Positions 2,086 to 27,498 of a DNA stretch of 49,351 bases are shown here, piece after piece. The stretch's first letter is position 1. Each line of letters starts with the position of its first letter. The notes beneath the pieces were generated by a model. The model was not told the origin of the DNA and did not search any database. It saw only the letters and a program-made list of their open reading frames with translations. The position numbers and the translations under genes were made by a program. Source of the stretch: Burkholderiales bacterium (GTDB lineage Bacteria > Pseudomonadota > Gammaproteobacteria > Burkholderiales > SG8-41); NCBI GenBank assembly GCA_022843705.1, contig JALHND010000007.1:1-49351 (forward strand), in the 5' to 3' direction.

Positions 2086-2099
2086 TTGATCTACATCAA
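2086..2099. promoter_or_regulatory. Fnr/Dnr box shared by ccoN and uspA
   Basis: TTGAT-CTAC-ATCAA is a perfect match to the Fnr/Anr/Dnr consensus. Its centre (2092.5) is 67.5 bp from the ccoN ATG and 72.5 bp from the uspA ATG. Placing the box at -41.5 puts -10-like hexamers TATGCT (minus strand, 2063-2058) and TATCTT (plus strand, 2122-2127) at the expected spots. One symmetric site may therefore activate both divergent promoters. Confidence 0.85.
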
Positions 2100-3743: not shown

Positions 3744-3802
3744 GCCGCGTGGCGTCATTCGCGGTTTCAATGGCAGGCAGTCTTTCACGCCTGAAAGCTG
3801 CC

Positions 3803-4564
3803 ATGCCTATGAGCCGGGAACCCAAGCGATCCGGAAGCTCCCGCGGGGACAGCACCGCTGACCGCTCCCTCCCCGCGCGCAAGGCCTCCGCGCCGGATGC
3901 AGCCGGCCTGCTCGGACGCACCGCGCTGTTCGGCGGCCTCGATCCCGGAACGCTCACCCGCATCGCCGCCGGAACCACGATGGTCCGGGTGGCGCGCGGC
4001 AGCCTGCTGTTCCGCGCGGGAGACCCCTGCACGGGATTTCACCTGGTCATCGACGGCCGCATCAAGCTGTCGTTGCACAGTGCTCAAGGCGCGGAGCGGG
4101 TTGTCGAGCTGCCGGGGCCAGCCCAGACCTTCGGCGAAGCGGCGATGTTCATGCGCATCCCGTACCGGGTGTCCGCCGAAGCGATTGCCGACAGCCGCCT
4201 GCTGCATGTCGCCGCCAGTACCGTATTCAACGAACTGGAGCAGGATCCGCGGCTGGCTCACCGCATCATCGCCAGCCTCAGCATGCGGCTGCACCGCCTG
4301 GTGGGCGAGATCGAATCGCAGTCGCTGCTGTCCGGCACCCAGCGCGTGGTTGGATACCTGCTGAGCCTGGCGGATCCCGCAGCAACGGACGAAACCCTGG
4401 TCCGCCTGCCGGCACTGAAAAATGTCATCGCATCCCGGCTCAACCTGACGCATGAACATTTCTCGCGCATCCTGCATGCGCTGGCAGCCGCAGGGGTGAT
4501 CGTTCCGGAGGGTGCGGACATCCGGATACCCGACATCGACGCATTGCGCAGGCATCCGGACTGA
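3803..4564 (+). CDS. dnr: Crp/Fnr-family transcription regulator, Dnr-like
   Basis: A 253-residue regulator with an N-terminal cyclic-nucleotide-binding-type beta barrel (about residues 40-150), a dimerisation helix (about 150-178) and a winged helix-turn-helix. The helix-turn-helix holds E218, S221 and R222 as the E-x-x-S-R motif that in Fnr and Dnr contacts TTGAT half-sites. There is only one cysteine (C76), so it cannot bind the Fnr [4Fe-4S] cluster. This, with the similarity around FGEAAMFM, places it with Dnr, the haem-dependent NO-responsive activators of denitrification. The ATG at 3803 was preferred over the GTG at 3749 because the upstream box predicts a transcript starting near 3778. 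It is the probable reader of the boxes in this window. Confidence 0.88.
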   Translation: MPMSREPKRSGSSRGDSTADRSLPARKASAPDAAGLLGRTALFGGLDPGTLTRIAAGTTMVRVARGSLLFRAGDPCTGFHLVIDGRIKLSLHSAQGAERVVELPGPAQTFGEAAMFMRIPYRVSAEAIADSRLLHVAASTVFNELEQDPRLAHRIIASLSMRLHRLVGEIESQSLLSGTQRVVGYLLSLADPAATDETLVRLPALKNVIASRLNLTHEHFSRILHALAAAGVIVPEGADIRIPDIDALRRHPD

Positions 4565-5831: not shown

Positions 5832-6218
5832 TCAGGCCGCAGTCCACGGCAGCGGACTGCGCGTCAGCGCCACCGCGACGATGTAGAAAAAAACCGCCTG
5901 CGCGGCGAACCATGCCGCAATCCGCTGATTCCGGGTGCGGCCGCGTTTCAGCGCGATCGAGCCGAGGACGATGTAGAGCAGCAGCGCCAGCAGCTTGGCG
6001 GTCAGCCAGCCGGCAACAAAGGGATACTGGCGTATCATCAGCGCCATTGCGACGGCGCTGCCGAGCAGCACCGTATCGACGACATGCGGCAGAATGCGCA
6101 CCCAGCGCAGCCGCAGCCACTCCGGGGAGAACATCATCCAGATGCCGCGCAGCAGGAACAGCGCGTAGCTCACCGCAACGCAGCCGACATGCAGGCTTTT
6201 CAGTGTCAGATAGTCCAT
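5832..6218 (-). CDS. SirB2-family integral membrane protein
   Basis: A 128-residue, four-helix membrane protein of the SirB2 family, opening MDYLTLKSLHVGCVAVSY with a histidine near the start of helix 1 and a basic loop before the last helix. The molecular function of the family is not established. The ATG at 6218 is preferred because GGGAG lies 7 bases upstream; an ATG 15 bases further out has no better site. It is the last gene of the minus-strand run that begins with narK1, 33 bp after the carbonic anhydrase gene, which suggests cotranscription with the nar accessory genes. Confidence 0.85.
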   Translation of the reverse strand: MDYLTLKSLHVGCVAVSYALFLLRGIWMMFSPEWLRLRWVRILPHVVDTVLLGSAVAMALMIRQYPFVAGWLTAKLLALLLYIVLGSIALKRGRTRNQRIAAWFAAQAVFFYIVAVALTRSPLPWTAA

Positions 6219-6251
6219 GCGCGCTCCCGCCACCCGGACGGGAATCGCTGC

Positions 6252-6917
6252 CTACTGCAGCAGATCCACGCCGGCCAGCGGGTCATTCCGGTCTCCGGGC
6301 TGATGCAGGCCCGCATCGAAGGACGAAAACTTTCCGCTTTCGACGTCGAGCACCAGGATCTTGCCCTCCTCGATCAGGTAATGCCAGCCGCGGAGGAACA
6401 GCCGGCCCGCCTCGACGCGCTGGCGCACCATCGGGTAATCCATCAGCCGCTCGAGCTGCAGCGCCACCGAACGCTGCTCGGTGCGCCGCAGTGCCTCCTC
6501 CGACAGCGTGACCGGCAGCACGGCGTCCCGGCCGAGATCCAGCCACTTCGCCATGTGCCGCGCTTCCGCCGGCACATCGGTATAGAGTGCGCGCACCGCG
6601 CCGCAATGGCTGTGTCCGCAGACCACGATTTCACTGACATTGAGATTCAGCACCGCGAACTCCACCGCCGCCGCCGTGCCGTGATAACCCTGCGAGGCGT
6701 CGTAAGGCGGCACGAAGTTGCCGACATTGCGCACGATGAAAAGCTCGCCGGGGCCGCTGTCCATGATCAGGTACGGCAGCACCCGGGAGTCCGAGCAACC
6801 GATGAACAGCACCGTGGGATGCTGCCCTTGCTCGACGAGGTGGCGGAACTGGCTGCGCAGGCGCGGAAAATAGCGTGTCTGGAAGCGCCGCAGCCGGCGC
6901 AGGATTTCATCGCTCAT
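6252..6917 (-). CDS. Beta-class carbonic anhydrase
   Basis: A 221-residue zinc enzyme interconverting CO2 and bicarbonate. The ligand and catalytic set of the beta class is complete: C41, D43 and R45 in GCSDSR, and H102 and C105 in GHSHCG. The VRNVGN segment and the GTAAAVEFAV helix are also typical. There is no signal peptide, so it should be cytoplasmic. It lies 27 bp downstream of the thioredoxin/NnrS-like fusion gene in the same direction. The link to nitrate respiration is not obvious; CO2/bicarbonate or pH balance during anaerobic respiration is one possibility. Confidence 0.93.
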   Translation of the reverse strand: MSDEILRRLRRFQTRYFPRLRSQFRHLVEQGQHPTVLFIGCSDSRVLPYLIMDSGPGELFIVRNVGNFVPPYDASQGYHGTAAAVEFAVLNLNVSEIVVCGHSHCGAVRALYTDVPAEARHMAKWLDLGRDAVLPVTLSEEALRRTEQRSVALQLERLMDYPMVRQRVEAGRLFLRGWHYLIEEGKILVLDVESGKFSSFDAGLHQPGDRNDPLAGVDLLQ

Positions 6918-6944
6918 GCAACCCCGCGAATCCGGTGATTCCGT

Positions 6945-7646
6945 TCATTCCTGCAACTCCTGTTGATTGACGCGGCCGACTGCCTCCTGCACGGGCCACA
7001 ACAAGGGCATTATGCGCGCCGCGAACACCGCCAGCGCGGCCCATCCGAGGAGACCGCCGGAGATCGCCAGCGCCGGCAGACCGGCAGCCAGCCCGCCCAA
7101 AAACATCAGCAGTCCGGCATGGTGCAGGCCGAACTGCAGCCAGGCAACAGTACCCGACGCAATGGGCCTGCCGGTGAACCGCGGCAGCATGTGCGCCCCC
7201 AGGCCGTAGATCAGCGTCTGCACGAAACCGGCGGTGAAGAGATGCAGCCCGATGCCGCGCAGCAGGCCTTCCGCTGTCAGCGTTCCCTGCCATGCCAGCC
7301 ACAATGCGCCCGCCAGAAACCAGAGCATGGCACTGGACACGAACCATCGATTGTCTGCGGAGAGCGTGATTCCCGCATGACGGCGTGCAGCCCGGCGCCG
7401 CGGCGCCGCCGCCAGCATCTGCCGCACCTCCGCCAGGCTCTGCACACCCACCGCCTTCAACTCGCCATCGATCGCGACGGCGGGTATCGTGCGCACGCGC
7501 AGGCGGTGGGCCAGTTCCCGGCCCGCGGTCTGGTTGAGGTCGAGGACCGCGAATTCGATTTCCCGCTCGGCAGCCACCTGCATCCAAACCTGTTCCGCCT
7601 GCGGACAGGTCGGACACCACTCGGATACCAGCAACTCAACCTTCAC
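6945..7646 (-). CDS. Thioredoxin-fold domain fused to an NnrS-like membrane domain
   Basis: A 233-residue fusion. Residues 1-80 form a small thioredoxin/glutaredoxin-like domain with an active-site C11-P-T-C14 and the cis-proline loop T-I-P at 53-55. After a basic linker (82-90) come about four membrane helices (103-215) resembling half of an NnrS protein: YGLGAHMLPRFTGRP at 147-161 with H135, H152 and the H175-H176 pair as possible haem or metal ligands. The motif YG-x-G-x-H-x2-P-R-F-x-G is shared with the 133-residue protein at 8116-8517, so the two membrane domains are related. The start is a GTG at 7646 behind GGGAGG. No signal sequence precedes the thioredoxin domain, so it should face the cytoplasm. 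A redox role coupled to the membrane domain is inference. Confidence 0.8.
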   Translation of the reverse strand: MKVELLVSEWCPTCPQAEQVWMQVAAEREIEFAVLDLNQTAGRELAHRLRVRTIPAVAIDGELKAVGVQSLAEVRQMLAAAPRRRAARRHAGITLSADNRWFVSSAMLWFLAGALWLAWQGTLTAEGLLRGIGLHLFTAGFVQTLIYGLGAHMLPRFTGRPIASGTVAWLQFGLHHAGLLMFLGGLAAGLPALAISGGLLGWAALAVFAARIMPLLWPVQEAVGRVNQQELQE

Positions 7647-7659
7647 GCCGCCTCCCGGT

Positions 7660-8112
7660 TCACTGTGCGCAACGCATGCACTGAACGTCGTAGCGGTCGA
7701 TCCACGACTTCAGCCCCCCGACTGCAGCCCGCCCGGTCGCGAGATGATCGAGTGCATGCGCCGGATCATCCGGTCTGAACAGCACCAGCCAGGCTTCCGT
7801 GTAGGGGGCGATGTTCACCAGGTCCGGGCGCTCGAGCACCCGCTCGTTGCGCTCGACAATCACGCCGTCGAATGGCGCCGGTATCCCGCCTGCCCACTTC
7901 CCCGACTCGAGCCGTGCCAGGGGCTTCCTGCGCTGACGCCGGGAACCAGGCGGCCTGATCGAAACATGCTGGATCCGCCCGGCCATGGTTTGCGAGGGGT
8001 CGGTGATGCCGATCCGGAACAATCCCTCCGCTTCCGGCCTGACCCAGATGTAATCGAGGTCATACCAGAGGTCTTCCGGCAGTTCGCATCCTCGGTATTC
8101 GGTGACAGCCAT
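7660..8112 (-). CDS. GcvH-like lipoyl-carrier protein with C-terminal CxxC
   Basis: A 150-residue protein whose core matches the glycine cleavage H protein fold. The segment LESGK at 68-72 aligns with the H-protein E-S-V-K lipoylation site (K72 is the predicted lipoyl lysine), and P98-D-L-V-N then A-P-Y-x-E-A-W-L follow the usual spacing. No gcvT, gcvP or lipoate ligase gene lies nearby, so it is an orphan. The C-terminal extension after residue 115 is unusual and ends in C145-M-R-C148. It lies three bases after the half-NnrS gene and 13 bp before the thioredoxin fusion, so the three are surely cotranscribed. Orphan H-protein homologues carry lipoate in sulfur-oxidation systems; here a dithiol relay is my inference. 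Confidence 0.82.
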   Translation of the reverse strand: MAVTEYRGCELPEDLWYDLDYIWVRPEAEGLFRIGITDPSQTMAGRIQHVSIRPPGSRRQRRKPLARLESGKWAGGIPAPFDGVIVERNERVLERPDLVNIAPYTEAWLVLFRPDDPAHALDHLATGRAAVGGLKSWIDRYDVQCMRCAQ

Positions 8113-8115
8113 GGA

Positions 8116-8517
8116 TCAACTCCGGTCCAGAGGGGAACGCCAGCGCACTGTCAGCAGCATGTTGATGCCGAACAGGGCCATCGCGGCTACGGTGAGGGCG
8201 CCGCCAAGAGCCGTCAGCCAGTTGTCATATATCACCCACCCTGCGACCATCAGCGGCAATCCGGCATTGGCGAGCCAGAACTGGACCATCGCCACCCGTT
8301 CGGAGCGCAGCGGATAGCCGCCGAAGCGGGGAATCACGTGCAGTCCCACGCCGTAGATGATCATCAGCACGAAGCCGAGCATCATCATGTGCCCGTGGAT
8401 GCGCAGCACATTGCCCGGCACCAGTTGCGGATCAATGAGCCGCATCAGCATCAGCAACCCGCCGAGCAGGCCGTACACCAGGCCGATGGTGACGTAGAGC
8501 CGGTTACGCCGGTGCAT
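8116..8517 (-). CDS. Small NnrS-like four-helix membrane protein
   Basis: A 133-residue protein with four hydrophobic helices (about 8-26, 44-62, 78-97 and 103-122). Helix 2 carries H41, H43 and H60 in the context HGHMMMLGFV and YGVGLHVIPRFGG. The YG-x-G-x-H-x2-P-R-F-x-G motif recurs in the thioredoxin fusion downstream, and the position after nnrS supports an origin as a half-length NnrS relative. The histidines suggest haem or copper binding. The ATG at 8517 follows GGGAGA at 8 bases. It is 35 bp after nnrS and almost abuts the GcvH-like gene. No tested function is known to me. Confidence 0.75.
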   Translation of the reverse strand: MHRRNRLYVTIGLVYGLLGGLLMLMRLIDPQLVPGNVLRIHGHMMMLGFVLMIIYGVGLHVIPRFGGYPLRSERVAMVQFWLANAGLPLMVAGWVIYDNWLTALGGALTVAAMALFGINMLLTVRWRSPLDRS

Positions 8518-8552
8518 CACATGTCTCCCGCCGTCAGGCCGCCACGGCTCCG

Positions 8553-9698
8553 CTAACCGGGCTTGCCATCGAGGCGCGGTCGCGTGAGTATCGGCCAGTA
8601 ACGGAGCACATAAATGCCGAAGGCTGCAGCCCACAGCAGGCCCGAAACCTGGATGCCGGGCAGATACCATGACGGCAGCATGGCGCCGAACACCCGTATC
8701 AGCGCCGCGGCCTGGATCAGCAGGAAACAGGCCAGCTCGAAACCATCGGCGCGCAAGGGCCGTCCCGTATGGCCGCGCGCGGTGCGGGTCATCATGCCGA
8801 GAGTCATTCCGCCGATGGCGCCCACGGTCAGCGCGTGTATGGCATGGGTTTCGGCCACCCAGCCGACTGCAGCGAAGGCGCGCAAGGCAAGGTAGACGAC
8901 GATCCAGGCATAGGCCGCATGCAGGATCCACACCAGCGGGGTCGACAGCGTCCGCCAGGACCGCCACAGCAGCAGACGCAGGCCATGCGCGAAGGTCGCG
9001 ACCAGCGCGATGGCGGCGAGTACGGCCGCATCCGGCTGAAGCAGATCGGCGGCGAAGAGCATGAGCACCGAAGCCAGCGCCAGCCTCTCGATCCACAGCT
9101 GGCGGGTCGCGCCGGCGCCGGGCACCCCGTTGTTGGTGAACATCGGAATCACCCGCCCGCCGATCACCGCCATGATGAACAGCATCACGTCCAGCCCCAG
9201 CACCAGGCTCACGCGCGGTGGCAGCACCAGCACATCCAGCAGGGTGAGGTGCAGCGCGGCAACCAGCGCCGCCATCAGCAACAGCAAACCGACGAAGAAA
9301 TAGTTGCGTGCATTGCGTGCACGCCACAGCGGCAGTGCTATGGCCAGTGCCAGCGCCGCCGGAAATGCCGCGTTGGCCGCTGCGGCGAGCCCGCCCCAGG
9401 GCGTCAACACCAGCACGCGCCCGGCCACCCACAGCGCCGCCAGCGCCATCAGCGGAACGCCGGCCGGCGTCGGCTGCCCGGTCCATGCGCGCACCGCCGT
9501 CAGCAGAAAGCCGGCGACGACGGCCAGCGTATAACCGAAGAGCATCTCGTGGCCATGCCATAACGGGCCCTGGAGATAGGCGTTCTCCAGCAGGCCCGAC
9601 AGCTGCGCGACCCACAGCAGGATGGTGGCCACACTGAACAGGCTGGCCAGCAGGTAAAACGGCCGGAACCCGAGATTCCACAGCGCAAACTTGCCCAT
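8553..9698 (-). CDS. nnrS: NnrS family haem-copper membrane protein
   Basis: A 381-residue, roughly 12-helix inner-membrane protein of the NnrS family. Members contain haem and copper, are induced with nitrite/NO reduction and protect against nitrosative stress. The family signature is clear at the N-terminus (LGFRPFYLLAS, then PLWHGHEMLFGY), at GGRVIPMFTNN and at HALTVGAIGGMTLGMM followed by ARGHTGRPL. The ATG at 9698 is preferred over a TTG four codons earlier because GAGGGG lies just upstream. It follows the unknown gene by 8 bp and belongs to the nar run, so it should be made when nitrite and NO appear. Confidence 0.95.
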   Translation of the reverse strand: MGKFALWNLGFRPFYLLASLFSVATILLWVAQLSGLLENAYLQGPLWHGHEMLFGYTLAVVAGFLLTAVRAWTGQPTPAGVPLMALAALWVAGRVLVLTPWGGLAAAANAAFPAALALAIALPLWRARNARNYFFVGLLLLMAALVAALHLTLLDVLVLPPRVSLVLGLDVMLFIMAVIGGRVIPMFTNNGVPGAGATRQLWIERLALASVLMLFAADLLQPDAAVLAAIALVATFAHGLRLLLWRSWRTLSTPLVWILHAAYAWIVVYLALRAFAAVGWVAETHAIHALTVGAIGGMTLGMMTRTARGHTGRPLRADGFELACFLLIQAAALIRVFGAMLPSWYLPGIQVSGLLWAAAFGIYVLRYWPILTRPRLDGKPG

Positions 9699-9706
9699 TG
9701 CGCCCC

Positions 9707-10147
9707 TCAATCCAGCAGCAGCGGACGTCCCTGCCGGTCAAACGGCAGGAAGGATGCGACGGCACCCGCCTTGATCGCCTCGATCATCCGGTCCAGTGAG
9801 CGACCTGCACTGGCGCTGTCCGGCGCCCGGCCATTGCGGCCCGACAGTGCCGCGACAAACACCACCGACCAGTCGCGGCCGAATTGCCGGGACTCCTCGG
9901 CCAGCGCGGCAAAACCGGACAGCTCCTCCGGCAACTTGTCCACGCTCATCAGCGGCACCAGCGCCCCGCCCTCGCCTTCATGAAAACGGGCGTGCTGTTC
10001 CGGTGTGCTGTCTTCGGGCAGTTCCGCAGCCGCAAACACGAACAACAGGCGCTGCGGCTCGGGCTGCTGGCGCGCCGCCTGCAGCAGGTCCTCAAAACTC
10101 GCGATGCCCCTGCCCGCGTCTGCGGCCCCCGCCGCCGGACCCGCCAT
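9707..10147 (-). CDS. Conserved-looking protein of unknown function in the nar operon
   Basis: A 146-residue soluble protein, acidic, without signal peptide or membrane segment. It begins with a low-complexity Gly/Ala stretch, then SFEDLLQAARQQPEPQRLLFVF, and ends with a Ser/Gly-rich loop (ALSGRNGR) and a compact tail (AIKAGAVASFLPFDRQGRP). I do not recognise a defined domain. The start codon overlaps the stop of the parvulin gene (TGATG), and nnrS begins 8 bp further on, so translation is probably coupled to the nitrate reductase genes. A role in nitrate reductase maturation or NO defence is only a guess from context. Confidence 0.7.
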   Translation of the reverse strand: MAGPAAGAADAGRGIASFEDLLQAARQQPEPQRLLFVFAAAELPEDSTPEQHARFHEGEGGALVPLMSVDKLPEELSGFAALAEESRQFGRDWSVVFVAALSGRNGRAPDSASAGRSLDRMIEAIKAGAVASFLPFDRQGRPLLLD

Positions 10148-10935
10148 CACTGCACCAGCGGCGTGTCGGCCGCATCCAGATCAATGCCGCGGATATCCGC
10201 CTGCCCGGCGAGCAGAGACAGGTACTGCCGCAAGGCCGTCACGAAAGTCTGCTGGCGCAGGCTGTTCGCCACCGCCCCGCGCACCTCCTCGAAGGACTGT
10301 GCCTTGCCCGGCTCGCGCGCCAGCACCTCGACAACATGCAGGCCGAAGCGGCTGTGCACCAGACGCGGCAGCACGCCCACTTCGCTGCGGCCGAACAGTT
10401 CCCGCGCAAACTCCGGGGCGCAGTCTTCGGCCCTCAACCAGCCGAGGTCGCCGCCGTCAGCGGCGCTGGGACAGTTCGACAACTCACGGGCGGCGCTGGC
10501 AAAGACGCCGGCAGACTTTCCGTCGTGGCAGCGCACATCGAGCAGCGCGATTTCCGCGCGCTGGCGCAAGGCGGCGACATCCATGCCCGCAGTGACCGCA
10601 AACAGGATATGCCGGGCATGCACCCGTTCGCCGGTCTGGTAACTGCCGGCATGGGCGGCATGGTGGCGGCGGCAATCGGCCCCCGAGGGCTCGGGGACCG
10701 CGATTTCCCGGTCCAGCAGCTTCTGGATCGCTTCCGCTGCGGCTTCGCTGATGACGCCATCGACAGGTGCCTCGTCTTCGGCATCAAGCAGACCTGCAGC
10801 CTGTGCTGCCTGCCGCAACAGCTCGGTACAGGCACGCTGGCGCAGATCCTCCGCGGAGATAGTTTCTCCCGGGACATGAAGGGCTCGGCCGTTGACGCTG
10901 GCCGGGACTGTTTCGTTGCGGGTTTCGGCAATCAT
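10147..10935 (-). CDS. Parvulin-type peptidyl-prolyl isomerase of the nar operon
   Basis: A 262-residue protein with an N-terminal helical region (about 20-90, NifM-like) and a C-terminal rotamase domain recognisable by ERVHARHILF, DGGDLGWL, FGRSEVGVLPRLVHSRFGLHVVEV. There is no signal peptide, so it should act in the cytoplasm, plausibly on NarG/NarH folding before membrane attachment. Parvulin genes directly after narGHJI are familiar in betaproteobacteria. The ATG at 10935 has GGGAG at 8 bases; the ATG at 10941 would sit too close to it. It follows narI by 14 bp and overlaps the next gene. Confidence 0.88.
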   Translation of the reverse strand: MIAETRNETVPASVNGRALHVPGETISAEDLRQRACTELLRQAAQAAGLLDAEDEAPVDGVISEAAAEAIQKLLDREIAVPEPSGADCRRHHAAHAGSYQTGERVHARHILFAVTAGMDVAALRQRAEIALLDVRCHDGKSAGVFASAARELSNCPSAADGGDLGWLRAEDCAPEFARELFGRSEVGVLPRLVHSRFGLHVVEVLAREPGKAQSFEEVRGAVANSLRQQTFVTALRQYLSLLAGQADIRGIDLDAADTPLVQ

Positions 10936-10949
10936 GGTCATCGCTCCCT

Positions 10950-11690
10950 TCAGGCGCCGGGCTGGCGCGGCTGCTGATGGCCCGCCGGCAGGTTGAGCCG
11001 GCGCCCCCTCACCAGTTGATGCGGCCGCAACAGGTAGAACACGGTCGCAAACCCGCTCCACACATGGACCAGCCGGCTGAACGGGAACAGCAGGAAAATG
11101 GTCATGCCCAGCACCAGGTGCACCTTGTACGGCCAGTCCAGCGCAACCAGACCCTCGGCCCCGCCGACGCGGAAGGTGAACACACGCTGCGCCCAGTCGG
11201 ACAGCACCAGCATCACGCTGCCGTCGGAGTGGGAGAACGAATACGGCAACGTGATCAGGCCCAGTACCAGTTGCACCCAGAGGATGATCAGGATCGCAAG
11301 ATCGGTGCGGTGGCTGGTCAGGCGGATGCGCGGGTCGAAGATCCGGCGGTGGATCAGCAGCGTCAGGCCGACGAAGCAGACGACTCCGGCAATGCCGCCG
11401 GCAACGATGGCCACCAGCTGTTTCTGCGCCGGCGTGATGAAGGGCTCATAGACCCAGTGCGGCGTCAGCAGGCCGACGAAATGGCCGAAGAACAGGAACA
11501 GGATGCCGACATGGAACAGGTTGCTGCCCCAGCGCAGGGTCCCCGTACGCAGCATCTGCGACGAGTCGCTTTTCCAGGTGTACTGGTCGCGGTCGTAACG
11601 CGCGAGGCTGCCCACCAGGAACACCGTCATGCAGATGTACGGATAGGCGCTGAAAAAAAACAGGTGGAGATAGGTTTCGAAGGTGGTCAT
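10950..11690 (-). CDS. narI: Respiratory nitrate reductase gamma subunit (cytochrome b)
   Basis: The di-haem b membrane subunit of NarGHI, which oxidises quinol on the periplasmic side and passes electrons to NarH. The 246-residue protein has five hydrophobic segments and the histidines expected as haem ligands (FHVGILFLFFGHFVG in helix 2; KVHLVLG and RLVHVWS in helix 5). The ATG overlaps the narJ stop codon (ATGA), so translation is coupled. Confidence 0.97.
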   Translation of the reverse strand: MTTFETYLHLFFFSAYPYICMTVFLVGSLARYDRDQYTWKSDSSQMLRTGTLRWGSNLFHVGILFLFFGHFVGLLTPHWVYEPFITPAQKQLVAIVAGGIAGVVCFVGLTLLIHRRIFDPRIRLTSHRTDLAILIILWVQLVLGLITLPYSFSHSDGSVMLVLSDWAQRVFTFRVGGAEGLVALDWPYKVHLVLGMTIFLLFPFSRLVHVWSGFATVFYLLRPHQLVRGRRLNLPAGHQQPRQPGA

Positions 11691-12379
11691 GCTGCGGCTC
11701 CCGTGTCGGGTTTGCGTCGTACCAGATGGATGGGCTGGACCCGGTCCGGCCGTGCCTGCCCTTTTACCGAGCAGCCGTCAAAGGCCGGCGGCTCGCTCCA
11801 GCTCTCGTCGAGCGGTGGTTCTGCGGCCGGCGTGATTGCGGTCGGCTTCTCGCCGGCGATTTCGAGCAGCGCGGCCGCCACTGCGGCATAACGTGTTCCG
11901 CGCTGGGCCAGCGCGGCATGCAGCGCATCCAGGATGTGGGCGATCTCGCCAAGAAAGGCGCGCGCCTCGCGCGGCGGCTGTGTCGAGGCAAACTCGAGCA
12001 CCGCCGGCAGGTAATCCGGCAGTTCGCCCGGCTCAAGGAACAGACCCGCCTGCTCGTAGGTCTGCGCGAGGTCGATCATCGCCGGACCGCGATCGCGTGA
12101 ATCGCCATGTACATGCTCGAAGAGGTGCAGCGAGGTCGCACGCCCGCAGTCGAAGATCTGCACGTATTCCGCTTCAGCCTCCAGCGGATCGGCCAGCATC
12201 AGCGAGTTGATCAGCCCGCCGAGTTCGGCCAGCCGCGGCACCGGCACCGCGGATTCCTCGTGCAGCGCCTTGAGCATGTCCGGCAGTTGCGCCCTCAGCG
12301 CGGCATCCGGGTAACCCAGCAGCGCGGACAGCACGCGCAGGCTGCGGGATGCGGCGGGAGCCCTGTTCAGGATGGCCAT
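11687..12379 (-). CDS. narJ: Nitrate reductase molybdenum cofactor assembly chaperone
   Basis: A 230-residue cytoplasmic chaperone of the NarJ/TorD type that binds the NarG N-terminus and allows molybdenum cofactor insertion before the NarGH complex docks to NarI. The helical body contains EYVQIFDCGRATSLHLFEHVHGD, the best conserved stretch of the family, and LEPGELPDYLPAVLEF. The last 60 residues are Pro/Glu-rich and variable. It starts two bases after the narH stop codon and overlaps narI. Confidence 0.96.
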   Translation of the reverse strand: MAILNRAPAASRSLRVLSALLGYPDAALRAQLPDMLKALHEESAVPVPRLAELGGLINSLMLADPLEAEAEYVQIFDCGRATSLHLFEHVHGDSRDRGPAMIDLAQTYEQAGLFLEPGELPDYLPAVLEFASTQPPREARAFLGEIAHILDALHAALAQRGTRYAAVAAALLEIAGEKPTAITPAAEPPLDESWSEPPAFDGCSVKGQARPDRVQPIHLVRRKPDTGAAA

Positions 12380-12381
12380 GG

Positions 12382-13905
12382 TCAGACCTCCAGCTTCACG
12401 GGGATGGTGCGCTTCTTCTCGCTGCCGAACAGGCTGGTCTCGGTAGTGCCTTCGGAACAACCGTTGCCGAAGGAGAAGCCGCAGCTGCCGCGGACGTTGA
12501 AGGCGTTCTCGGCGTACTCGCGGTGCGTGCTCGGAATCACGAAGCGGTCTTCGTAGTTGGCGATGGCCATGATGCGGTACATGTCCTCGACCGTTTCCAC
12601 CGACAGACCGGCCTGCTGCAGCACCGCTTCGTTGCGCCTGCCCTCGACATGCTTGTCGCGCTGGTAGGCGCGCATCGCCAGCATCCGCTGCAGCGCACGC
12701 TCGACCGGCAGGGTGTCGCCGGCGGTCAGCAGGTTGGCCAGGTACTTCACCGGGATGCGCAACTGGCTGACATCGGGGATGCCGCCGCTGAGGCCAAGGT
12801 GTCCGGCATTGGCCGCGGCACTGATCGGCGACAGCGGCGGCACATACCAGACCATCGGCAGCGTACGGTACTCCGGGTGCAGCGGCAGCGCGACCTTCCA
12901 CTCCACCGCCATCTTGTAGACCGGGCTGTTGCGCGCGGCTTCCATCCAGTTGTCGGGAATCCCGTCGGCCCGCGCCTGGGCAATGACCTGCGGGTCGTTG
13001 GGGTCGAGGAAGATGCCCAGCTGTGCCTGGTAGAGGTCGCGGTCATGCTCGGTGGACGCCGCCTCGGCAATACGGTCGGCATCGTAGAGCAGCACGCCGA
13101 GGTAGCGGATGCGGCCGACGCAGGTCTCCGAACACACGGTCGGCTGGCCCGCCTCGATGCGCGGGTAGCAGAAAATGCACTTTTCGGCCTTGCCGCTTTT
13201 CCAGTTGTAGTAGATCTTCTTGTAGGGACAGCCGCTGACGCACATCCGCCAGCCGCGGCACTTGTCCTGGTCGATCAGCACGATGCCGTCCTCCTCGCGC
13301 TTGTAGATCGATCCCGAAGGGCAGGATGCGACACAGGCCGGATTGAGGCAGTGCTCGCACAGCCGCGGCAGGTACATCATGAAGGTGTTCTCGAACTCGC
13401 CGTACATCTGCTTCTGGATGTCGTCGAAATTCCTGTCGGCGCTGCGCTTCGAGAACTCGCCGCCGAGGATCTCCTCCCAGTTAGGCCCCCACACGATCTT
13501 GTCCATCTGCATGCCGGTGATCAGGCTGCGCGGACGCGCGGTCGGGCTCGCCTTCATCTCCGGCGCGTTCTGCAGGTGCGCATAGTCGAAGGTGAAAGGC
13601 TCGTAATAATCATCGATCTCCGGCAGGTTCGGATTGGCGAAGATCTTCATCAGCAGCTTCCACTTGCCGCCCTGCCGCGGCTCGATCGAGCCGTCGGCAC
13701 GGCGCACCCAGCCGCCGTTCCACTTGTCCTGGTTCTCCCATTCCTTGGGGTAACCGATGCCGGGCTTGGTCTCGACGTTGTTGAACCAGGCATACTCCAT
13801 GCCGGGCCTGCTGGTCCACACGTTCTTGCAGGTCACCGAACAGGTGTGGCAGCCGATGCACTTGTCGAGGTTGAGCACCATGCCGATCTGGGCGCGGATT
13901 TTCAT
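12382..13905 (-). CDS. narH: Respiratory nitrate reductase beta subunit
   Basis: The 507-residue Fe-S subunit that relays electrons from NarI to NarG. Four cysteine groups are visible: CIGCHTCSVTC near residue 19, CEHCLNPACVASC, CRGWRMCVSGC and CIFCYPRIEAGQPTVCSETC. In the third group a tryptophan replaces the second cysteine, as in known NarH proteins where this site holds a [3Fe-4S] cluster; the others hold [4Fe-4S] clusters. The start overlaps the narG stop by four bases. Confidence 0.98.
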   Translation of the reverse strand: MKIRAQIGMVLNLDKCIGCHTCSVTCKNVWTSRPGMEYAWFNNVETKPGIGYPKEWENQDKWNGGWVRRADGSIEPRQGGKWKLLMKIFANPNLPEIDDYYEPFTFDYAHLQNAPEMKASPTARPRSLITGMQMDKIVWGPNWEEILGGEFSKRSADRNFDDIQKQMYGEFENTFMMYLPRLCEHCLNPACVASCPSGSIYKREEDGIVLIDQDKCRGWRMCVSGCPYKKIYYNWKSGKAEKCIFCYPRIEAGQPTVCSETCVGRIRYLGVLLYDADRIAEAASTEHDRDLYQAQLGIFLDPNDPQVIAQARADGIPDNWMEAARNSPVYKMAVEWKVALPLHPEYRTLPMVWYVPPLSPISAAANAGHLGLSGGIPDVSQLRIPVKYLANLLTAGDTLPVERALQRMLAMRAYQRDKHVEGRRNEAVLQQAGLSVETVEDMYRIMAIANYEDRFVIPSTHREYAENAFNVRGSCGFSFGNGCSEGTTETSLFGSEKKRTIPVKLEV

Positions 13906-16900
13906 GCGTTTTCTCCGTCTGACTGGACTGCGGCGACACGCTCTGCCCCGACCGGCGTGTCCAGCCAGTCGATGCGCTTCATCTTGCGCACGACGACGAA
14001 CTCGTCGCGGTTGGTGCCTATGGTGCCGTAGTAGTTGAAACCGTAGCTGAACTGGGCGTAGCCGCCGATCATGTGCGTGGGCTTCAGCACGATGCGGGTC
14101 ACCGAGTTGTGGATACCACCGCGCACGCCGGTGATTTCGGACCCCGGGGTGTTCACGATCTTCTCCTGCGCGTGGTACATCATCACCATGCCGGGGTTGA
14201 CGCGCTGGCTGACCACCGCACGCGCCGCAATCGCGCCATTGATGTTGAACAGCTCCACCCAGTCGTTGTCGACGATGTCTGCGCGCTTCGCGTCATCCTC
14301 CGACAGCCAGATGATCGGGCCGCCACGCGACAGCGTCAGCATCATCAGGTTGTCGGTGTAGGTGGAATGGATCCCCCACTTCTGGTGCGGCGTGATGAAG
14401 TTGAGCAGAATCTCCGGATTGCCGTTGCTGCGGATGCCGTGAATGCCGGCGGTGGTCTTCAGGTCCACCGGCGGGCGGTAACTCGACAGGTTTTCGCCGA
14501 AAGCACGGATCCACGGGTGGTCGAGGTAGAACTGCTGGCGGCCGGTCAGCGTGCGCCAGGGAATCAGCTCGTGCACGTTGGTGTAGCCGGCGTTGTAGGA
14601 TACCGTCTCGCTTTCGATGCCGCTCCAGGTCGGCGAGGAGATGATCTTGCGCGGCTGGGCCTGGATGTCGCGGAAGCGGATTTTCTCGTCCTCGCGATGC
14701 AGCGCCAGGTGCCGGTGATCGCGGCCGGTGGCCTTGCCCAGCGCTTCCCAGGCCTTGACCGCGACATGGCCGTTGGTTTCCGGCGCCAGCTGCAGCACCA
14801 CTTCGCAGGCGTCGATGTCGGTCTCGATCCGCGGCAGGCCCTTGGTCGGGCCATCCTCGCGCACGACGCCGTTCAGCTCGCCCAGCTGGCCGACCTCGGT
14901 CTGGGTATTCCAGGCGATGCCCTTGCCGCCGTTGCCGACCTTGGTCATCAGCGGCCCCAGCGCGGTGAATCTTTTGTATACATTGGGATAGTCGCGCTCG
15001 ACCACAGCAATCTGCGGTGCCGTCTTGCCCGGAACCAGCTCGCACTCGCCGCGTTTCCAGTCCTTGACGTCCAGCGCCTGCCCGAGTTCGGCAGGACTGT
15101 CATGCATCAGCGGGGTCAGCACCAGTTCCTTCTCGACGCCGAGGTGGCCGGGACAGAGTTCGCTGAATTTTTTCGCAAAACCCTTGTAGATGTCCCAGTC
15201 GGATCGCGACTGCCAGGCGGGATCCACTGCCGTGGACAGCGGGTGGATGAAGGGATGCATGTCGCTGGTGTTGAGGTCGTTTTTCTCGTACCAGGTCGCC
15301 GTCGGCAGCACGATGTCCGAATAAAGGCAGGTCGTGCTCATGCGGAAATCCAGCGTCACCAGCAGGTCGAGCTTGCCCTCCGGCGCCTGCTCGTGCCAGG
15401 CCACTTCCTGCGGCTTCGCGTCGCCTGCGCCGAGGTCCTTGCCCTGCACGCCGTTGCTGGTGCCGAGCAGGTGCTTCAGGAAATACTCGTGCCCCTTGCC
15501 GCTGGAGCCCAGCAGGTTGGACCGCCAGACGAACAGGTTGCGCGGCCAGTTGGCCGGATGGTCGGGGTCGCCGCAGCTCATTTTCAGCGAGCCGTCCTTC
15601 AGCGCCTTCACCGCGTAGTCCTTGGGGTCCATGCCCGCCGCCTGCGCGTCGCGCACCACCTGCAGCGGATTGGTCTGCAGCTGCGGCGCCGAAGGCAGCC
15701 AGCCCATGCGCTCGGCGCGCACGTTGTAGTCGATCATGCTGCCGCCCCATTGCTTGCGGTCGGCCAGCGGCGACAGCACTTCGTCGACGCCGAGCTTCTC
15801 GTAGCGCCACTGGTCGGTGTGGGCATAGAAGAAACTGGTCGAATTCTGCTGCCGCGGCGGCCGGATCCAGTCGAGCGCGAAGGCCAGCGCCGTCCAGCCG
15901 GTCTGCGGCCGCAGCTTTTCCTGGCCGACGTAATGCGCCCAGCCGCCGCCGCTCTTGCCGATGCAGCCGCAGAGCATCAGCATGTTGATGACACCGCGGT
16001 AGTTCATGTCGCTGTGGTACCAGTGATTCATAGCCGCGCCGATGATCACCATCGAACGACCCTGGGTCTTGTCGGCATTGTCGGCAAACTGGCGCGCCAC
16101 CGTGATCACCTGGTCGCGCGGCACGCCGGTGATCTGCTCCTGCCAGGCCGGGGTGTAAGGCACGTTGTCGTCGTAATCCTTCGCGCAGTTCTCGCCGGCG
16201 ATGCCGCGTGCGACGCCATACTGCGCGACCTGCAGGTCGAACACCGTCGCCACCAGTGCCTCGCCGCCGGCCAGCGTCAGGCGGCGCACGGGTACCGCGC
16301 GCGACAGCACATCGCTTTGCCGGTTGGCCTGAAAATGTTCGCGATCGATGCCGCCGAAATAGGGGAAACCGACAACGGCGGTATCCGCCGCATCGCTTGC
16401 GCCCTCCAGCACGGACAGTTGCAGCCGGGTTTCCGTCCCGCTGCGTGCATCCCTGGTCTCGAGATTCCAGCGGCCGGCATCGGCACGTCCTTCCGGCCCC
16501 CAGCGGAATCCGATCGATCCGTGATGCAGCACCACCTTGCCGTCATCTGCACAGGCCACGGTCTTCCATTCCGCGTTGTTGTCCTGGCCCAGCCGGTCGG
16601 CAAAATCGGCGGCGCGCACATAACGGTCCGGCACCATGATCTTCCCGCCATCGGGCAACACATGCTCCTTCAGCATCACCAGCATCGGCAGGTCGGTGTA
16701 GCGCCGCGCGTAATCGTCGAAATAGGCGCTGCGACGGTCGAAATAGAACTCCTTCAGGATCACGTGGCCCATCGCCATCGCCAGCGCGGCGTCGGTGCCC
16801 TGCTTGGGATGCAGCCAGAGGTCCGACAGCTTGGCGACCTCCGAATAATCCGGGGTAATCGCCACCGTCTTGGTGCCCTTGTAGCGCACCTCGGTGAAAA

Positions 16901-17696
16901 AGTGCGCATCGGGGGTGCGCGTCTGCGGCACGTTGGAACCCCAGGCGATGATGAAATTCGAGTTGTACCAGTCCGCCGACTCCGGCACATCGGTCTGCTC
17001 GCCCCAGATCTGCGGGCTGGCCGGCGGCAGATCGCAATACCAGTCGTAGAAGCTCATGCAAACACCGCCGATCAGGCTCAGGTAGCGGCTGCCCGCGGCA
17101 TAACTGACCATCGACATCGCCGGGATCGGCGAAAAACCGATCACCCGGTCGGGACCGTACTTGCCGATGGTGTAGATGTTGGCCGCGGCGATGATTTCGT
17201 TGACCTCGTCCCAGCCCGAACGCACGAAACCGCCGAGGCCGCGCACGCGCTGGTAATCGCGCCGCGCCTCCTCGGACTCGACAATCGATGCCCAGGCCTC
17301 GACCGGCCCCTTGTCAAGGCGAGCTGCGCGCCAGCGCTTGAGCAGGCGACCGCGCACCATCGGATACTTCACCCGGTTGGCGCTGTAGAGGTACCAGCTG
17401 TAACTCGCGCCGCGGGCGCAGCCCCGCGGCTCGTGGTTGGGCATGTCCCAGCGCGTGCGCGGATAGTCGGTCTGCTGGGTCTCCCAGGTAACGATGCCGC
17501 CCTTGACGTGGATTTTCCAGGAGCAGGATCCGGTGCAGTTCACGCCATGGGTGGAGCGCACGATCTTGTCGCTCGCCCAGCGATTGCGGTAGGCATCCTC
17601 CCAGGTGCGATCCTCGCCGCTGGTCAGGCCGTGGCCATCGGCGAAGGATTCCCGAGGGGTCGCAAAGTAGTTCAGTCGGTCAAGGAAATGGCTCAT
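13902..17696 (-). CDS. narG: Respiratory nitrate reductase alpha subunit (molybdopterin)
   Basis: The 1264-residue catalytic subunit reduces nitrate to nitrite in the cytoplasm with bis-MGD molybdenum. Ligands of the FS0 cluster are H50, C54, C58 and C93, and D222 in YCDLPPASPQ is the expected molybdenum ligand; this numbering is within one residue of the E. coli enzyme. The protein is full length and lacks a working Tat signal, as expected for membrane-bound Nar. It lies 49 bp after narK2 and overlaps narH. Confidence 0.99.
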   Translation of the reverse strand: MSHFLDRLNYFATPRESFADGHGLTSGEDRTWEDAYRNRWASDKIVRSTHGVNCTGSCSWKIHVKGGIVTWETQQTDYPRTRWDMPNHEPRGCARGASYSWYLYSANRVKYPMVRGRLLKRWRAARLDKGPVEAWASIVESEEARRDYQRVRGLGGFVRSGWDEVNEIIAAANIYTIGKYGPDRVIGFSPIPAMSMVSYAAGSRYLSLIGGVCMSFYDWYCDLPPASPQIWGEQTDVPESADWYNSNFIIAWGSNVPQTRTPDAHFFTEVRYKGTKTVAITPDYSEVAKLSDLWLHPKQGTDAALAMAMGHVILKEFYFDRRSAYFDDYARRYTDLPMLVMLKEHVLPDGGKIMVPDRYVRAADFADRLGQDNNAEWKTVACADDGKVVLHHGSIGFRWGPEGRADAGRWNLETRDARSGTETRLQLSVLEGASDAADTAVVGFPYFGGIDREHFQANRQSDVLSRAVPVRRLTLAGGEALVATVFDLQVAQYGVARGIAGENCAKDYDDNVPYTPAWQEQITGVPRDQVITVARQFADNADKTQGRSMVIIGAAMNHWYHSDMNYRGVINMLMLCGCIGKSGGGWAHYVGQEKLRPQTGWTALAFALDWIRPPRQQNSTSFFYAHTDQWRYEKLGVDEVLSPLADRKQWGGSMIDYNVRAERMGWLPSAPQLQTNPLQVVRDAQAAGMDPKDYAVKALKDGSLKMSCGDPDHPANWPRNLFVWRSNLLGSSGKGHEYFLKHLLGTSNGVQGKDLGAGDAKPQEVAWHEQAPEGKLDLLVTLDFRMSTTCLYSDIVLPTATWYEKNDLNTSDMHPFIHPLSTAVDPAWQSRSDWDIYKGFAKKFSELCPGHLGVEKELVLTPLMHDSPAELGQALDVKDWKRGECELVPGKTAPQIAVVERDYPNVYKRFTALGPLMTKVGNGGKGIAWNTQTEVGQLGELNGVVREDGPTKGLPRIETDIDACEVVLQLAPETNGHVAVKAWEALGKATGRDHRHLALHREDEKIRFRDIQAQPRKIISSPTWSGIESETVSYNAGYTNVHELIPWRTLTGRQQFYLDHPWIRAFGENLSSYRPPVDLKTTAGIHGIRSNGNPEILLNFITPHQKWGIHSTYTDNLMMLTLSRGGPIIWLSEDDAKRADIVDNDWVELFNINGAIAARAVVSQRVNPGMVMMYHAQEKIVNTPGSEITGVRGGIHNSVTRIVLKPTHMIGGYAQFSYGFNYYGTIGTNRDEFVVVRKMKRIDWLDTPVGAERVAAVQSDGENA

Positions 17697-17745
17697 CTCT
17701 GCCTCATCAAGCGGTTGATCGTTGTTCGGAGGGCGAATGCGGTGT

Positions 17746-19164: not shown

Positions 19165-19192
19165 GCGGATTCCTTTTGAAATGTTCCGGCGC

Positions 19193-20455: not shown

Positions 20456-20637
20456 TGCCGCGCCCTTTCCATGTCCATGCATGGAAGGTAGTGCGCCGGG
20501 GCGGACGACGATATTCGCCGGAAGGCGGTCATCACGAAGCCATGCGCACTAGGCGCAGCCGTGTTGACTAATACGAAAGGACTAGGGGCGCGAAGGATGC
20601 CACGGCATCCTTGAGAAAAATATATAAGTACTTGTTT
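20456..20637 (-). promoter_or_regulatory. Leader and promoter region of the narK1-narK2-narGHJI run
   Basis: This 182-bp gap between narL and narK1 is the only room for a nar promoter. It holds an AT-rich patch (20611-20637), a hairpin GGATGC-CACG-GCATCC (20595-20610) and a degenerate Fnr-like palindrome TTGAC-TAAT-ACGAA (20564-20577, 7 of 10 positions), centred 115 bp before the narK1 ATG at 20455. One heptamer ATAAGTA (20624-20630, reverse complement TACTTAT) fits the NarL consensus TACYYMT. The sites are weak matches and no clear -10 or -35 stands out. Confidence 0.45.
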
Positions 20638-23267: not shown

Positions 23268-23297
23268 GGCCGGCGGATCACGGTTGACCGCACCATG

Positions 23298-23450
23298 TTA
23301 ACCCTTGTCCTCGTCGTCATCCATCAGAATTCGGTGCGCCGGCCCTTCCATGTCGTCGAACTGCCCGCTTTTCAGCGCCCACCAAAAAACGGCACCGATC
23401 GCGAACACCAGCACCACGCTCAGTGGAATCAGCAGATAGAGGATCTCCAT
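23298..23450 (-). CDS. ccoS: cbb3 oxidase assembly protein CcoS
   Basis: A 50-residue single-helix protein. It opens MEILYLLIPLSVVLVF, continues with WWALKSGQFDDMEGPAHRIL, which is the signature of CcoS/FixS, and ends in an acidic tail DDDED. CcoS is needed for maturation of the CcoN cofactors. It follows the DASS transporter by 11 bp and precedes narX by 30 bp. Normally ccoS directly follows ccoI; here the transporter gene sits between them. Confidence 0.93.
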   Translation of the reverse strand: MEILYLLIPLSVVLVFAIGAVFWWALKSGQFDDMEGPAHRILMDDDEDKG

Positions 23451-23461
23451 GTATGCGCCGG

Positions 23462-24949: not shown

Positions 24950-25009
24950 GTCTCACCTCCTCCGCTTGAATGAACCGGAACAGTCTCTGCCTGCCCCGGC
25001 ATCCGGGTA

Positions 25010-25023
25010 TTGATGCAGATCAA
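25010..25023. promoter_or_regulatory. Fnr/Dnr box overlapping the ccoI stop codon
   Basis: TTGAT-GCAG-ATCAA is a perfect consensus match. The right half overlaps the last bases of ccoI including its TGA (25020-25022). The centre is 67.5 bp before the DASS transporter ATG, the same distance as for ccoN. A weak -10-like hexamer is possible near 24982-24987. Confidence 0.8.
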
Positions 25024-27488: not shown

Positions 27489-27498
27489 GTCCTTGCCA

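What the first reader, a model, noticed from the sequence alone, without database searches (positions are those of the whole stretch)
5832..10147. Nar-linked accessory module combining NnrS, two half-NnrS domains, a lipoyl carrier and a thioredoxin fold
Directly after narGHJI and a parvulin gene come, on the same strand and with gaps of 3-35 bp: an unknown 146-residue protein, NnrS, a 133-residue half-NnrS-like protein, a GcvH-like protein with a lipoyl-lysine site (K72), a thioredoxin/half-NnrS fusion, a beta-carbonic anhydrase and SirB2. NnrS is known for nitrosative-stress defence. A lipoyl arm (dithiol), a CxxC thioredoxin and histidine-rich membrane helices together suggest a membrane dithiol relay that handles NO or nitrosated thiols formed during nitrate respiration. 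The gene content is seen; the pathway is inference, and I know of no description of it.
Basis: partly seen in the sequence, partly recalled or inferred. Interest (0 to 1): 0.78.

Follow-up and report, generated by a model that had tools for sequence, protein, structure and literature searches.

The report
Lipoyl–thioredoxin membrane module of sulfur bacteria
Three neighbouring genes, for a lipoate-type carrier protein and two haem-protein-like membrane halves (one bearing a thioredoxin), travel together in sulfur-oxidizing bacteria, often behind a DNA site typical of oxygen- or nitric-oxide-sensing regulators, pointing to an unexplored link between sulfur oxidation and nitric oxide or low oxygen.

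Summary
The gene content is as described, but the conserved unit is smaller: half-NnrS (HN), lipoyl protein (LBP), thioredoxin/half-NnrS (TrxHN), all three in that order in 32 of 40 loci; nar genes occur in the DNA held for 5.

LBP is not GcvH but a third type of LbpA, the lipoyl carrier of sHdr sulfur oxidation, grouping with LbpA1 (98/98) and bearing an extra C-terminal cysteine that makes CxxC. In a 399-genome draw, 17 genomes with LBP, and one with LBP cut by a contig end, are all among the 33 with sHdrB1.

TrxHN's membrane part fits the C-half of NnrS; HN fits the N-half weakly. An FNR/DNR box precedes HN (at most 1 mismatch in 36 of 52 loci; 64 of 2,732 control windows), with a DNR-like regulator and hemerythrins at some loci. 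An Acidithiobacillus plasmid carries LBP and free thioredoxin among globin, hcp, NnrS and sHdrB1.

Best reading: an NO- or low-oxygen-induced dithiol relay serving lipoyl-based sulfur oxidation. The NO idea gains support, the nar idea does not. The mechanism is untested.

The parts
8116..8517 (-). HN: half-NnrS of 133 aa, four predicted helices; H41, H43, H60 invariant in 34 aligned sequences
   Evidence: weak match to NnrS N-half; AF2, mean pLDDT 77.5; cbb3 oxidase and NO reductase lead the PDB matches, E above 0.1
7660..8112 (-). LBP: LbpA-type lipoyl carrier of 150 aa; K72 in ESGKW, C9, C-terminal C145-M-R-C148
   Evidence: tree; column counts
6945..7646 (-). TrxHN: thioredoxin domain (WCPTC) fused to a half-NnrS of four helices; H135, H152 invariant in 32 aligned sequences
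   Evidence: matches NnrS C-half; AF2, mean pLDDT 88.8
8553..9698 (-). full-length NnrS; neighbour here, not a regular member
9707..10147 (-). 146-aa protein of unknown function; 5 of 7 matching plasmid records annotate it 'ribonucleotide reductase subunit alpha'
6252..6917 (-). beta-carbonic anhydrase, neighbour
5832..6233 (-). SirB2-family membrane protein, neighbour; matches in 9 of 40 loci, two of them short
10147..11061 (-). parvulin-type peptidyl-prolyl isomerase downstream of narI (longest frame; the real start may be further in)
3749..4564 (+). Crp/Fnr-family regulator, best solved match DNR
   Evidence: 3dkw, E 4.8e-36
25010..25023 (.). perfect FNR/DNR box TTGAT-N4-ATCAA ahead of the minus-strand transporter gene that starts at 24949; may serve the nar run (inferred)

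Best explanation
The functional unit is HN-LBP-TrxHN, a three-gene module of sHdr-type sulfur oxidizers under control of a DNR/FNR-type regulator. LBP is a third type of LbpA, loaded on K72 with lipoate by the sLpl/LipS pathway of these organisms. HN and TrxHN form a split, NnrS-like membrane unit with haem-type histidines and a cytoplasmic thioredoxin domain. When NO appears or oxygen falls, the module is made. The dihydrolipoyl arm and the CMRC pair of LBP exchange a dithiol/disulfide (or pull NO or sulfane sulfur off modified thiols) with the WCxxC of TrxHN, and the electrons or the NO end at the membrane haems. It thereby protects, or keeps running, lipoyl-bound sulfur oxidation. Shown here by sequence: the unit, LbpA kinship, the CxxC, NnrS kinship (well for TrxHN, weakly for HN), the box, DNR-like regulators at the loci tested, nesting within sHdr genomes. 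Inferred: lipoylation, haem, HN-TrxHN pairing, electron direction, NO as the signal, protection as the purpose.
For: HN-LBP-TrxHN in this order in 32 of 40 loci. LBP groups with LbpA1 (98/98), apart from LbpA2 and GcvH, and has both LbpA cysteines plus C148, present in 28 of 28 trio LBPs and 0 of 17 LbpA1. The 17 genomes of 399 with trio-type LBP, and an 18th whose LBP is cut by a contig end, are all among the 33 with sHdrB1. All 33 LBP-bearing genomes among the 39 tested have sHdrB1 or sLpl. hhalign: TrxHN membrane part to NnrS C-half E 4e-9, HN to N-half E 7e-5. Box with at most 1 mismatch upstream of HN in 36 of 52 loci against 64 of 2,732 random windows. The regulator divergent from the Sulfuriferula module best matches DNR, E 1e-36. 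Hemerythrin matches in 19 of 59 loci (three proteins confirmed as PF01814). Second configuration on an Acidithiobacillus ferrooxidans plasmid: globin, FAD oxidoreductase, Trx, hemerythrin, LBP, DUF2249, hemerythrin, sHdrB1, Crp/Fnr regulator, hcp, NnrS, with boxes. Published: DNR binds TTGATnnnnATCAA, and nnrS and dnrN are core genes of NO regulons (PMC1274295, passages).
Against: No experiment. The box cannot tell FNR (oxygen) from DNR (NO), and 11 of the loci are closely related Thioalkalivibrio. Boxes are missing (3 or more mismatches) ahead of HN in L083, L084, L085, L098, L099, L113, L118, L124 and L127. 28 of 39 module genomes showed no NarG and 29 of 39 no PF02239 protein, so NO would often have to come from elsewhere (NirK not searched). 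The LBP/WCxxC match is one event on the tree. 15 of 33 sHdrB1 genomes lack the LBP. Three LBP genomes showed no sHdrB1, and two sHdrB1 genomes have HN-TrxHN without LBP (L103, L104). The Acidithiobacillus plasmids have LBP and Trx without HN or the TrxHN membrane part, so these are not obligatory. HN matches NnrS only over 39 columns; the two halves of NnrS do not match each other (E 0.75), while HN and TrxHN match each other strongly (E 1e-22), so 'split NnrS' is not a simple cut of NnrS. HN falls below both Pfam cut-offs and its Foldseek E-values exceed 0.1.
Confidence: 0.4

Rival explanations
1. Electron exit, not defence: at low oxygen (FNR signal) lipoyl-LBP collects electrons from sulfane-sulfur oxidation and passes them through Trx and the HN/TrxHN haems to quinone, a branch of sHdr sulfur oxidation.
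For: LBP is LbpA-type and nested in sHdr genomes; HN resembles part of cbb3 oxidase and NO reductase; a gene in the rhodanese position directly downstream in 9 Thioalkalivibrio loci, one of them confirmed as PF00581; in the window the module follows nar.
Against: Hemerythrins, DNR-like regulators and the plasmid with hcp, globin and NnrS fit stress better; no quinone site was shown; no membrane part on the Acidithiobacillus plasmids.
Confidence: 0.25
2. Spare part: LBP is an NO-tolerant stand-in for LbpA1, like the extra sHdrB1 copies, so that sHdr works while its normal parts are damaged.
For: LBP groups with LbpA1; extra sHdrB1 copies, alone in the stretches fetched, lie next to DUF2249 in L170 and L171 and near DUF2249 on the Acidithiobacillus plasmid, with FNR/DNR-like boxes nearby in L171 and on the plasmid.
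Against: Does not explain the tie to Trx and to the NnrS-like halves, nor the added CxxC.
Confidence: 0.15
3. Thiol-redox or haem assembly factor for respiratory enzymes (Nar, cbb3).
For: Next to narGHJI and a parvulin in the window; Trx fused to a membrane part.
Against: nar genes in 5 of 40 loci and NarG in 11 of 39 genomes; restriction to sHdr genomes is unexplained.
Confidence: 0.07
4. One reading: a relay for NO and nitrosated thiols made during the cell's own nitrate respiration.
For: Gene order in the window and in L083, L084, L098.
Against: NarG in 11 and PF02239 proteins in 10 of 39 module genomes.
Confidence: 0.05

Closest known systems
LbpA1/LbpA2 of the sHdr pathway (PMC6067878: section 6 and passages; PMC10332631: passages)
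   Same: Lipoyl lysine in ESGKW, conserved N-terminal and C-terminal cysteines, sHdrB1 and sLpl in most of the genomes tested
   Different: Set apart in the tree (own monophyly unresolved), C-terminal CxxC, no sHdr genes beside it in the 40 loci, partners Trx and NnrS-like halves
NnrS (PF05940)
   Same: TrxHN membrane part resembles the C-half, HN weakly the N-half
   Different: Two genes, a thioredoxin domain added, HN below the Pfam cut-off and TrxHN not listed by Pfam
cbb3 oxidase / NO reductase catalytic subunits (PF00115)
   Same: HN aligns over 57 residues with the window's own CcoN-like protein, H41 and H43 on its H-x-H; they lead its PDB matches, E above 0.1
   Different: Four helices only; below the Pfam cut-off
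DNR/FNR regulons of nitrogen-oxide stress (PMC1274295, passages)
   Same: Box TTGAT-N4-ATCAA, DNR-like regulator, hemerythrin and NnrS neighbours
   Different: No lipoyl carrier in the passages seen

Membership tests
LbpA (sHdr lipoate-binding protein) | strictly conserved lipoyl lysine | tested here: met
   K72 in 28 of 28
LbpA (sHdr lipoate-binding protein) | conserved cysteine near each end, absent from GcvH | tested here: met
   C9 and C145 in 28 of 28; gaps at these columns in 7 of 7 GcvH
LbpA (sHdr lipoate-binding protein) | groups with LbpA rather than GcvH | tested here: met
   98/98 with LbpA1; GcvH apart at 100/99; the program warned of long branches
LbpA (sHdr lipoate-binding protein) | encoded in or beside an shdr cluster (how the published set was drawn, not a property of the protein) | tested here: not met
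   next to nar in the window; no convincing sHdr gene in the 40 loci (one 27% match over 75 aa); beside one sHdrB1 gene on the A. ferrooxidans plasmid. I therefore call it LbpA-type, not LbpA1 or LbpA2
LbpA (sHdr lipoate-binding protein) | lipoylated by sLpl | not testable with these tools
   sLpl matches in 35 of 39 genomes
GcvH of the glycine cleavage system | NCBIfam cut-offs for GcvH (TIGR00527 115.85 bits, NF002270 117 bits) | tested here: not met
   68.6 and 95.2 bits; note that the own LbpA2 passes NF002270 with 129.8, so this model does not separate LbpA from GcvH well
NnrS | PF05940 over the cut-off (28 bits), full length | tested here: not met
   HN 21.2 bits over profile 13-129 of 371; TrxHN not listed
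NnrS | haem and copper bound | not testable with these tools
   conserved histidines only
Haem-copper oxidase subunit I (COX1) | PF00115 over the cut-off (34.8 bits) | tested here: not met
   34.1 bits
DNR/FNR regulon | box TTGAT-N4-ATCAA upstream | tested here: met
   21 of 52 perfect, 36 of 52 with at most 1 mismatch; not ahead of HN in nine loci, among them the nar-embedded L083, L084, L098
DNR/FNR regulon | response to NO rather than oxygen | not testable with these tools
   two regulators best match DNR

The most novel reading that the evidence does not exclude
An NO-inducible enzyme system that uses protein-bound lipoate: lipoyl-LBP and thioredoxin strip NO (or nitrosated sulfane sulfur) from the sulfur-oxidation carriers and hand it, or the electrons, to a split NnrS-like haem unit; that is, a lipoate-dependent denitrosylase or NO reductase, which would also give NnrS relatives a reaction.
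Probability: 0.22. Interest if true: 0.85.

Novelty: new variant of a known kind. Interest (0 to 1): 0.64.

Why it matters
It adds a third kind of LbpA, with its own redox motif, to the sHdr sulfur-oxidation system, and ties lipoate-based sulfur oxidation to an FNR/DNR-type circuit. The chemistry of NnrS is, to my knowledge (recalled), unsettled; an NnrS-like unit in two pieces, one fused to thioredoxin and paired with a lipoyl donor, suggests what an electron partner could be and makes this testable with three small genes. It also shows that a protein annotated 'glycine cleavage system protein H' in three Acidithiobacillus plasmid records is probably something else.

Tried and rejected
Filing LBP as GcvH: rejected. 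Nar specificity: rejected. Treating the 146-aa protein, carbonic anhydrase and SirB2 as parts of the module: not conserved with it. A phylogeny-corrected test of LBP against WCxxC and of LBP against sHdr: one independent pair each, so no power. Phylum-wide survey with the TrxHN alignment: only the own genome among 398 at E 1e-25; it says that the module is rare, no more. Phage records, searched with the plasmid LBP: 11 records; the five rows shown are 31-37.5% identical. Plasmid records with HN: three short Thermus matches. Structure search with TrxHN: thioredoxins, fusion constructs and unrelated proteins. Paper searches for NnrS with lipoyl and nitrate (none), GcvH (2 papers), sulfur oxidation with thioredoxin (none) and lipoate (2 papers): I saw listings, and none describes this combination as far as titles and abstract starts show; PMC12423496 was read in passages and names NnrS once. 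The listings were seen as lists only, apart from the papers cited.

Names of the own sHdr and lipoate genes were first my recognition; bear them out as relatives (HdrB, HdrA and HdrC models, DsrE, LipS1, LipS2, lipoate ligase), all below NCBI's equivalog cut-offs (for example LipS1 190.8 of 230 bits, LipS2 195.3 of 270, HdrB 115.8 of 450).

Rows dropped: duplicates L130, L131, L140; broken or cut L113, L121, L129, L132; second copy L098. In the tree the duplicates L042-L046, L051, L052 and the cut L023 were left out; also L016. L119's WCxxC was set by hand from its first fragment, because an ambiguous base splits the frame. Of the LBPs 28, of the TrxHN 32 and of the HN 34 went into the alignments, the window's included. 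One search translated four NnrS rows on the wrong strand; redone. The three 399-genome draws have the same size and the same listed handles; I could not check every unlisted genome.


Full report
What is there. Searches confirm the gene run: narGHJI, a parvulin-type isomerase, a 146-aa unknown, NnrS, a 133-aa half-NnrS (HN), a 150-aa GcvH-like protein (LBP), a 233-aa thioredoxin/half-NnrS fusion (TrxHN), beta-carbonic anhydrase and SirB2, all on the minus strand with short gaps. LBP has K72 in ESGKW. The window lies in a 3.4-Mb genome in 247 contigs.

The conserved unit. In 100 relatives, LBP homologues of 61-89% identity occur in five genomes, one of them with two copies, besides short pieces in two more. 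In those five genomes LBP lies between HN and TrxHN, not always near nar. A scan of named genomes with the TrxHN alignment gave 40 loci in 39 genomes. HN, LBP and TrxHN are all present in this order in 32; two have LBP-TrxHN without HN (L102, L105), four HN-TrxHN without LBP (L101, L103, L104, L118), and two are rearranged (L113, L121). Named sources with LBP include Sulfuriferula, Sideroxydans, a Thiobacillus and 11 Thioalkalivibrio loci; the Gallionellaceae and Sulfuricella loci lack LBP. In the DNA held, nar genes are found in five loci and full-length NnrS in four. So the trio is the unit, and nar is one of several neighbours.

What LBP is. The next homologues after the trio LBPs are genes, often in pairs. 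In the own genome such a pair stands beside a DsrE-like gene and relatives of LipS1, lipoate ligase and LipS2, and a contig that ends within the start of such a gene carries HdrB-, HdrA- and HdrC-like genes (all below NCBI's equivalog cut-offs). This matches the published LbpA1/LbpA2 of the sHdr sulfur-oxidation system (PMC6067878, section 6; PMC10332631, passages). In a tree of 80 rows, trio LBP and LbpA1 form one group (98/98), LbpA2 another (97/91), with GcvH apart (100/99); whether the trio LBPs are one clade against LbpA1 is unresolved (in 35% of bootstrap trees), and the program warned of long branches. Published LbpA traits are the lipoyl lysine and one cysteine near each end. Trio LBPs have all three in 28 of 28, and a second C-terminal cysteine, C148, giving CxxC, found in 0 of 17 LbpA1. 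All 42 distinct full-length copies have ESGKW and a C-terminal C[M/L]RC.

Link to sHdr. In draws of 399 genomes of the order, HN occurs in 27, sHdrB1 in 33 and trio-type LBP in 17, the own genome included each time; an 18th has its LBP cut by the contig end (L132). All 18 are in the sHdrB1 set (Fisher p 1.5e-22, not corrected for kinship). Of the nine HN genomes without LBP, three have sHdrB1 and six do not. In the 39 genomes of the named loci, sHdrB1 is found in 34, sLpl in 35, NnrS in 28, NarG in 11 and cytochrome-cd1-type proteins in 10 (copper nitrite reductase not searched). All 33 LBP-bearing genomes of the 39 have sHdrB1 or sLpl. Against this: 15 of the 33 sHdrB1 genomes lack LBP, and three LBP genomes showed no sHdrB1.

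HN and TrxHN. With NnrS profiles built from 24 sequences, the TrxHN membrane part fits the C-half (E 4e-9; N-half 0.017). HN fits the N-half better than the C-half (E 7e-5 over 39 columns, against 1.4e-3 over 112), which is weak. HN and the TrxHN membrane part fit each other far better (E 1e-22), while the two NnrS halves do not fit each other (E 0.75). So the pair is NnrS-like and in two pieces, but not simply NnrS cut in two. These are single-pair values. AF2 gives TrxHN a thioredoxin-like domain and four long helices (mean pLDDT 88.8) and HN four helices (77.5). HN's leading PDB matches are cbb3 oxidase and NO reductase, with E above 0.1, and H41/H43 align with the H-x-H of the window's CcoN-like protein. 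TrxHN begins directly with the thioredoxin domain, and basic residues precede its first helix while the next loop has none, which places the Trx domain in the cytoplasm (inference; no signal-peptide program was run). Haem binding is inferred.

LBP and Trx go together. Of 51 rows, 41 have LBP and WCxxC and 10 have neither. Of those 10, seven keep a CxxC without the tryptophan and three lack the domain. The tree counts one change for each, so this is a single event. Another pairing comes from three Acidithiobacillus ferrooxidans plasmid records: a free thioredoxin (51% to the TrxHN domain, WCPVC), one hemerythrin gene, then a trio-type LBP (55% to the window's, 60% to a Thioalkalivibrio LBP, ESGKW, QCMRC), without HN or the TrxHN membrane part (one record looked at in detail).

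Regulation and company. TTGAT-N4-ATCAA lies within 300 bp upstream of HN, mostly at about -65 to -85, perfect in 21 and with at most one mismatch in 36 of 52 loci, against 15 and 64 of 2,732 random windows of the same loci; ten perfect ones are from close Thioalkalivibrio. Nine loci have no such site (three or more mismatches), among them the nar-embedded L083, L084 and L098. A Crp/Fnr-type gene lies divergently just upstream of HN in 13 of 40 loci. The one of the Sulfuriferula locus L088 and the window's own at 3749 best match DNR. PMC1274295 (passages) gives this motif for the NO-responsive DNR and lists nnrS and dnrN among core genes. The same motif serves FNR, so oxygen cannot be excluded. 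Hemerythrin matches lie in 19 of 59 scanned loci, duplicates included, and a rhodanese-type gene follows TrxHN in 9 Thioalkalivibrio loci. The Acidithiobacillus plasmid has globin, FAD oxidoreductase, Trx, hemerythrin, LBP, DUF2249, hemerythrin, sHdrB1 (79% to the own sHdrB1) and further on a Crp/Fnr regulator (34% to that of L088), hcp, a second oxidoreductase and NnrS, with box-like sites 105, 89 and 78 bp before globin (1 mismatch), DUF2249 (1 mismatch) and hcp (perfect), and a fourth inside the NnrS gene.

Mechanism. The most economical reading is an NO- or low-oxygen-induced dithiol relay: lipoyl-LBP and its CMRC pair exchange with the Trx domain, and the NnrS-like halves take electrons or NO at the membrane, in service of lipoyl-bound sulfur oxidation. 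Each chemical step is inferred. The electron-exit and spare-part rivals are not excluded.

Novelty. The parts belong to known families; the combination was not found in the searches. I rate it a new variant of a known kind. After the recount I left the odds as they were.

Noticed in passing
L170:9219, L171:9249; L169:16364-17704: Extra sHdrB1 genes, alone in the stretches fetched, next to a DUF2249 gene in two genomes of the order and near one on an A. ferrooxidans plasmid, with FNR/DNR-like boxes nearby in L171 and on the plasmid: perhaps stress-induced spare sHdr parts.
   Followed up: partly
L169 (NZ_CP040512.1) 11659-27861: Stretch of an Acidithiobacillus ferrooxidans plasmid joining globin, hemerythrins, hcp, NnrS, LBP, Trx and sHdrB1.
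   Followed up: partly
L113:4416-5006; L121:6685-7014: Apparent in-frame deletions: the start of LBP fused to the TrxHN membrane part, and the start of HN fused to the end of TrxHN; recombination between similar stretches or an assembly effect.
   Followed up: no
L123-L128: HN and a TrxHN-like gene without LBP in six genomes of one genus without sHdrB1; the Trx motif is xCPFC (four loci) or the domain is missing (L124, L127).
   Followed up: partly
L046, L051: LbpA2-LipS1-sLpl-GGR-LipS2-type clusters in two genomes (G094, G073) whose fetched stretch shows no sHdr match; G073 had no sHdrB1.
   Followed up: no
L135:1917, L136:8871: A second, divergent sLpl-like ligase (33-35%) near the trio; second copies of 29-39% occur in 15 of the 39 genomes.
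   Followed up: no
window 9707-10147: Relatives of the 146-aa protein are annotated 'ribonucleotide reductase subunit alpha' in 5 of 7 plasmid records, probably a wrong name for so small a protein.
   Followed up: no
window 2086-2099, 2680-2693, 25010-25023: Perfect FNR/DNR boxes between the CcoN-like and Usp genes, ahead of the radical SAM gene and ahead of a sulfate-symporter-type gene.
   Followed up: no
L037 and L038: One genome carries two copies of the trio, one beside nar and one without nar in the 20 kb fetched.
   Followed up: partly
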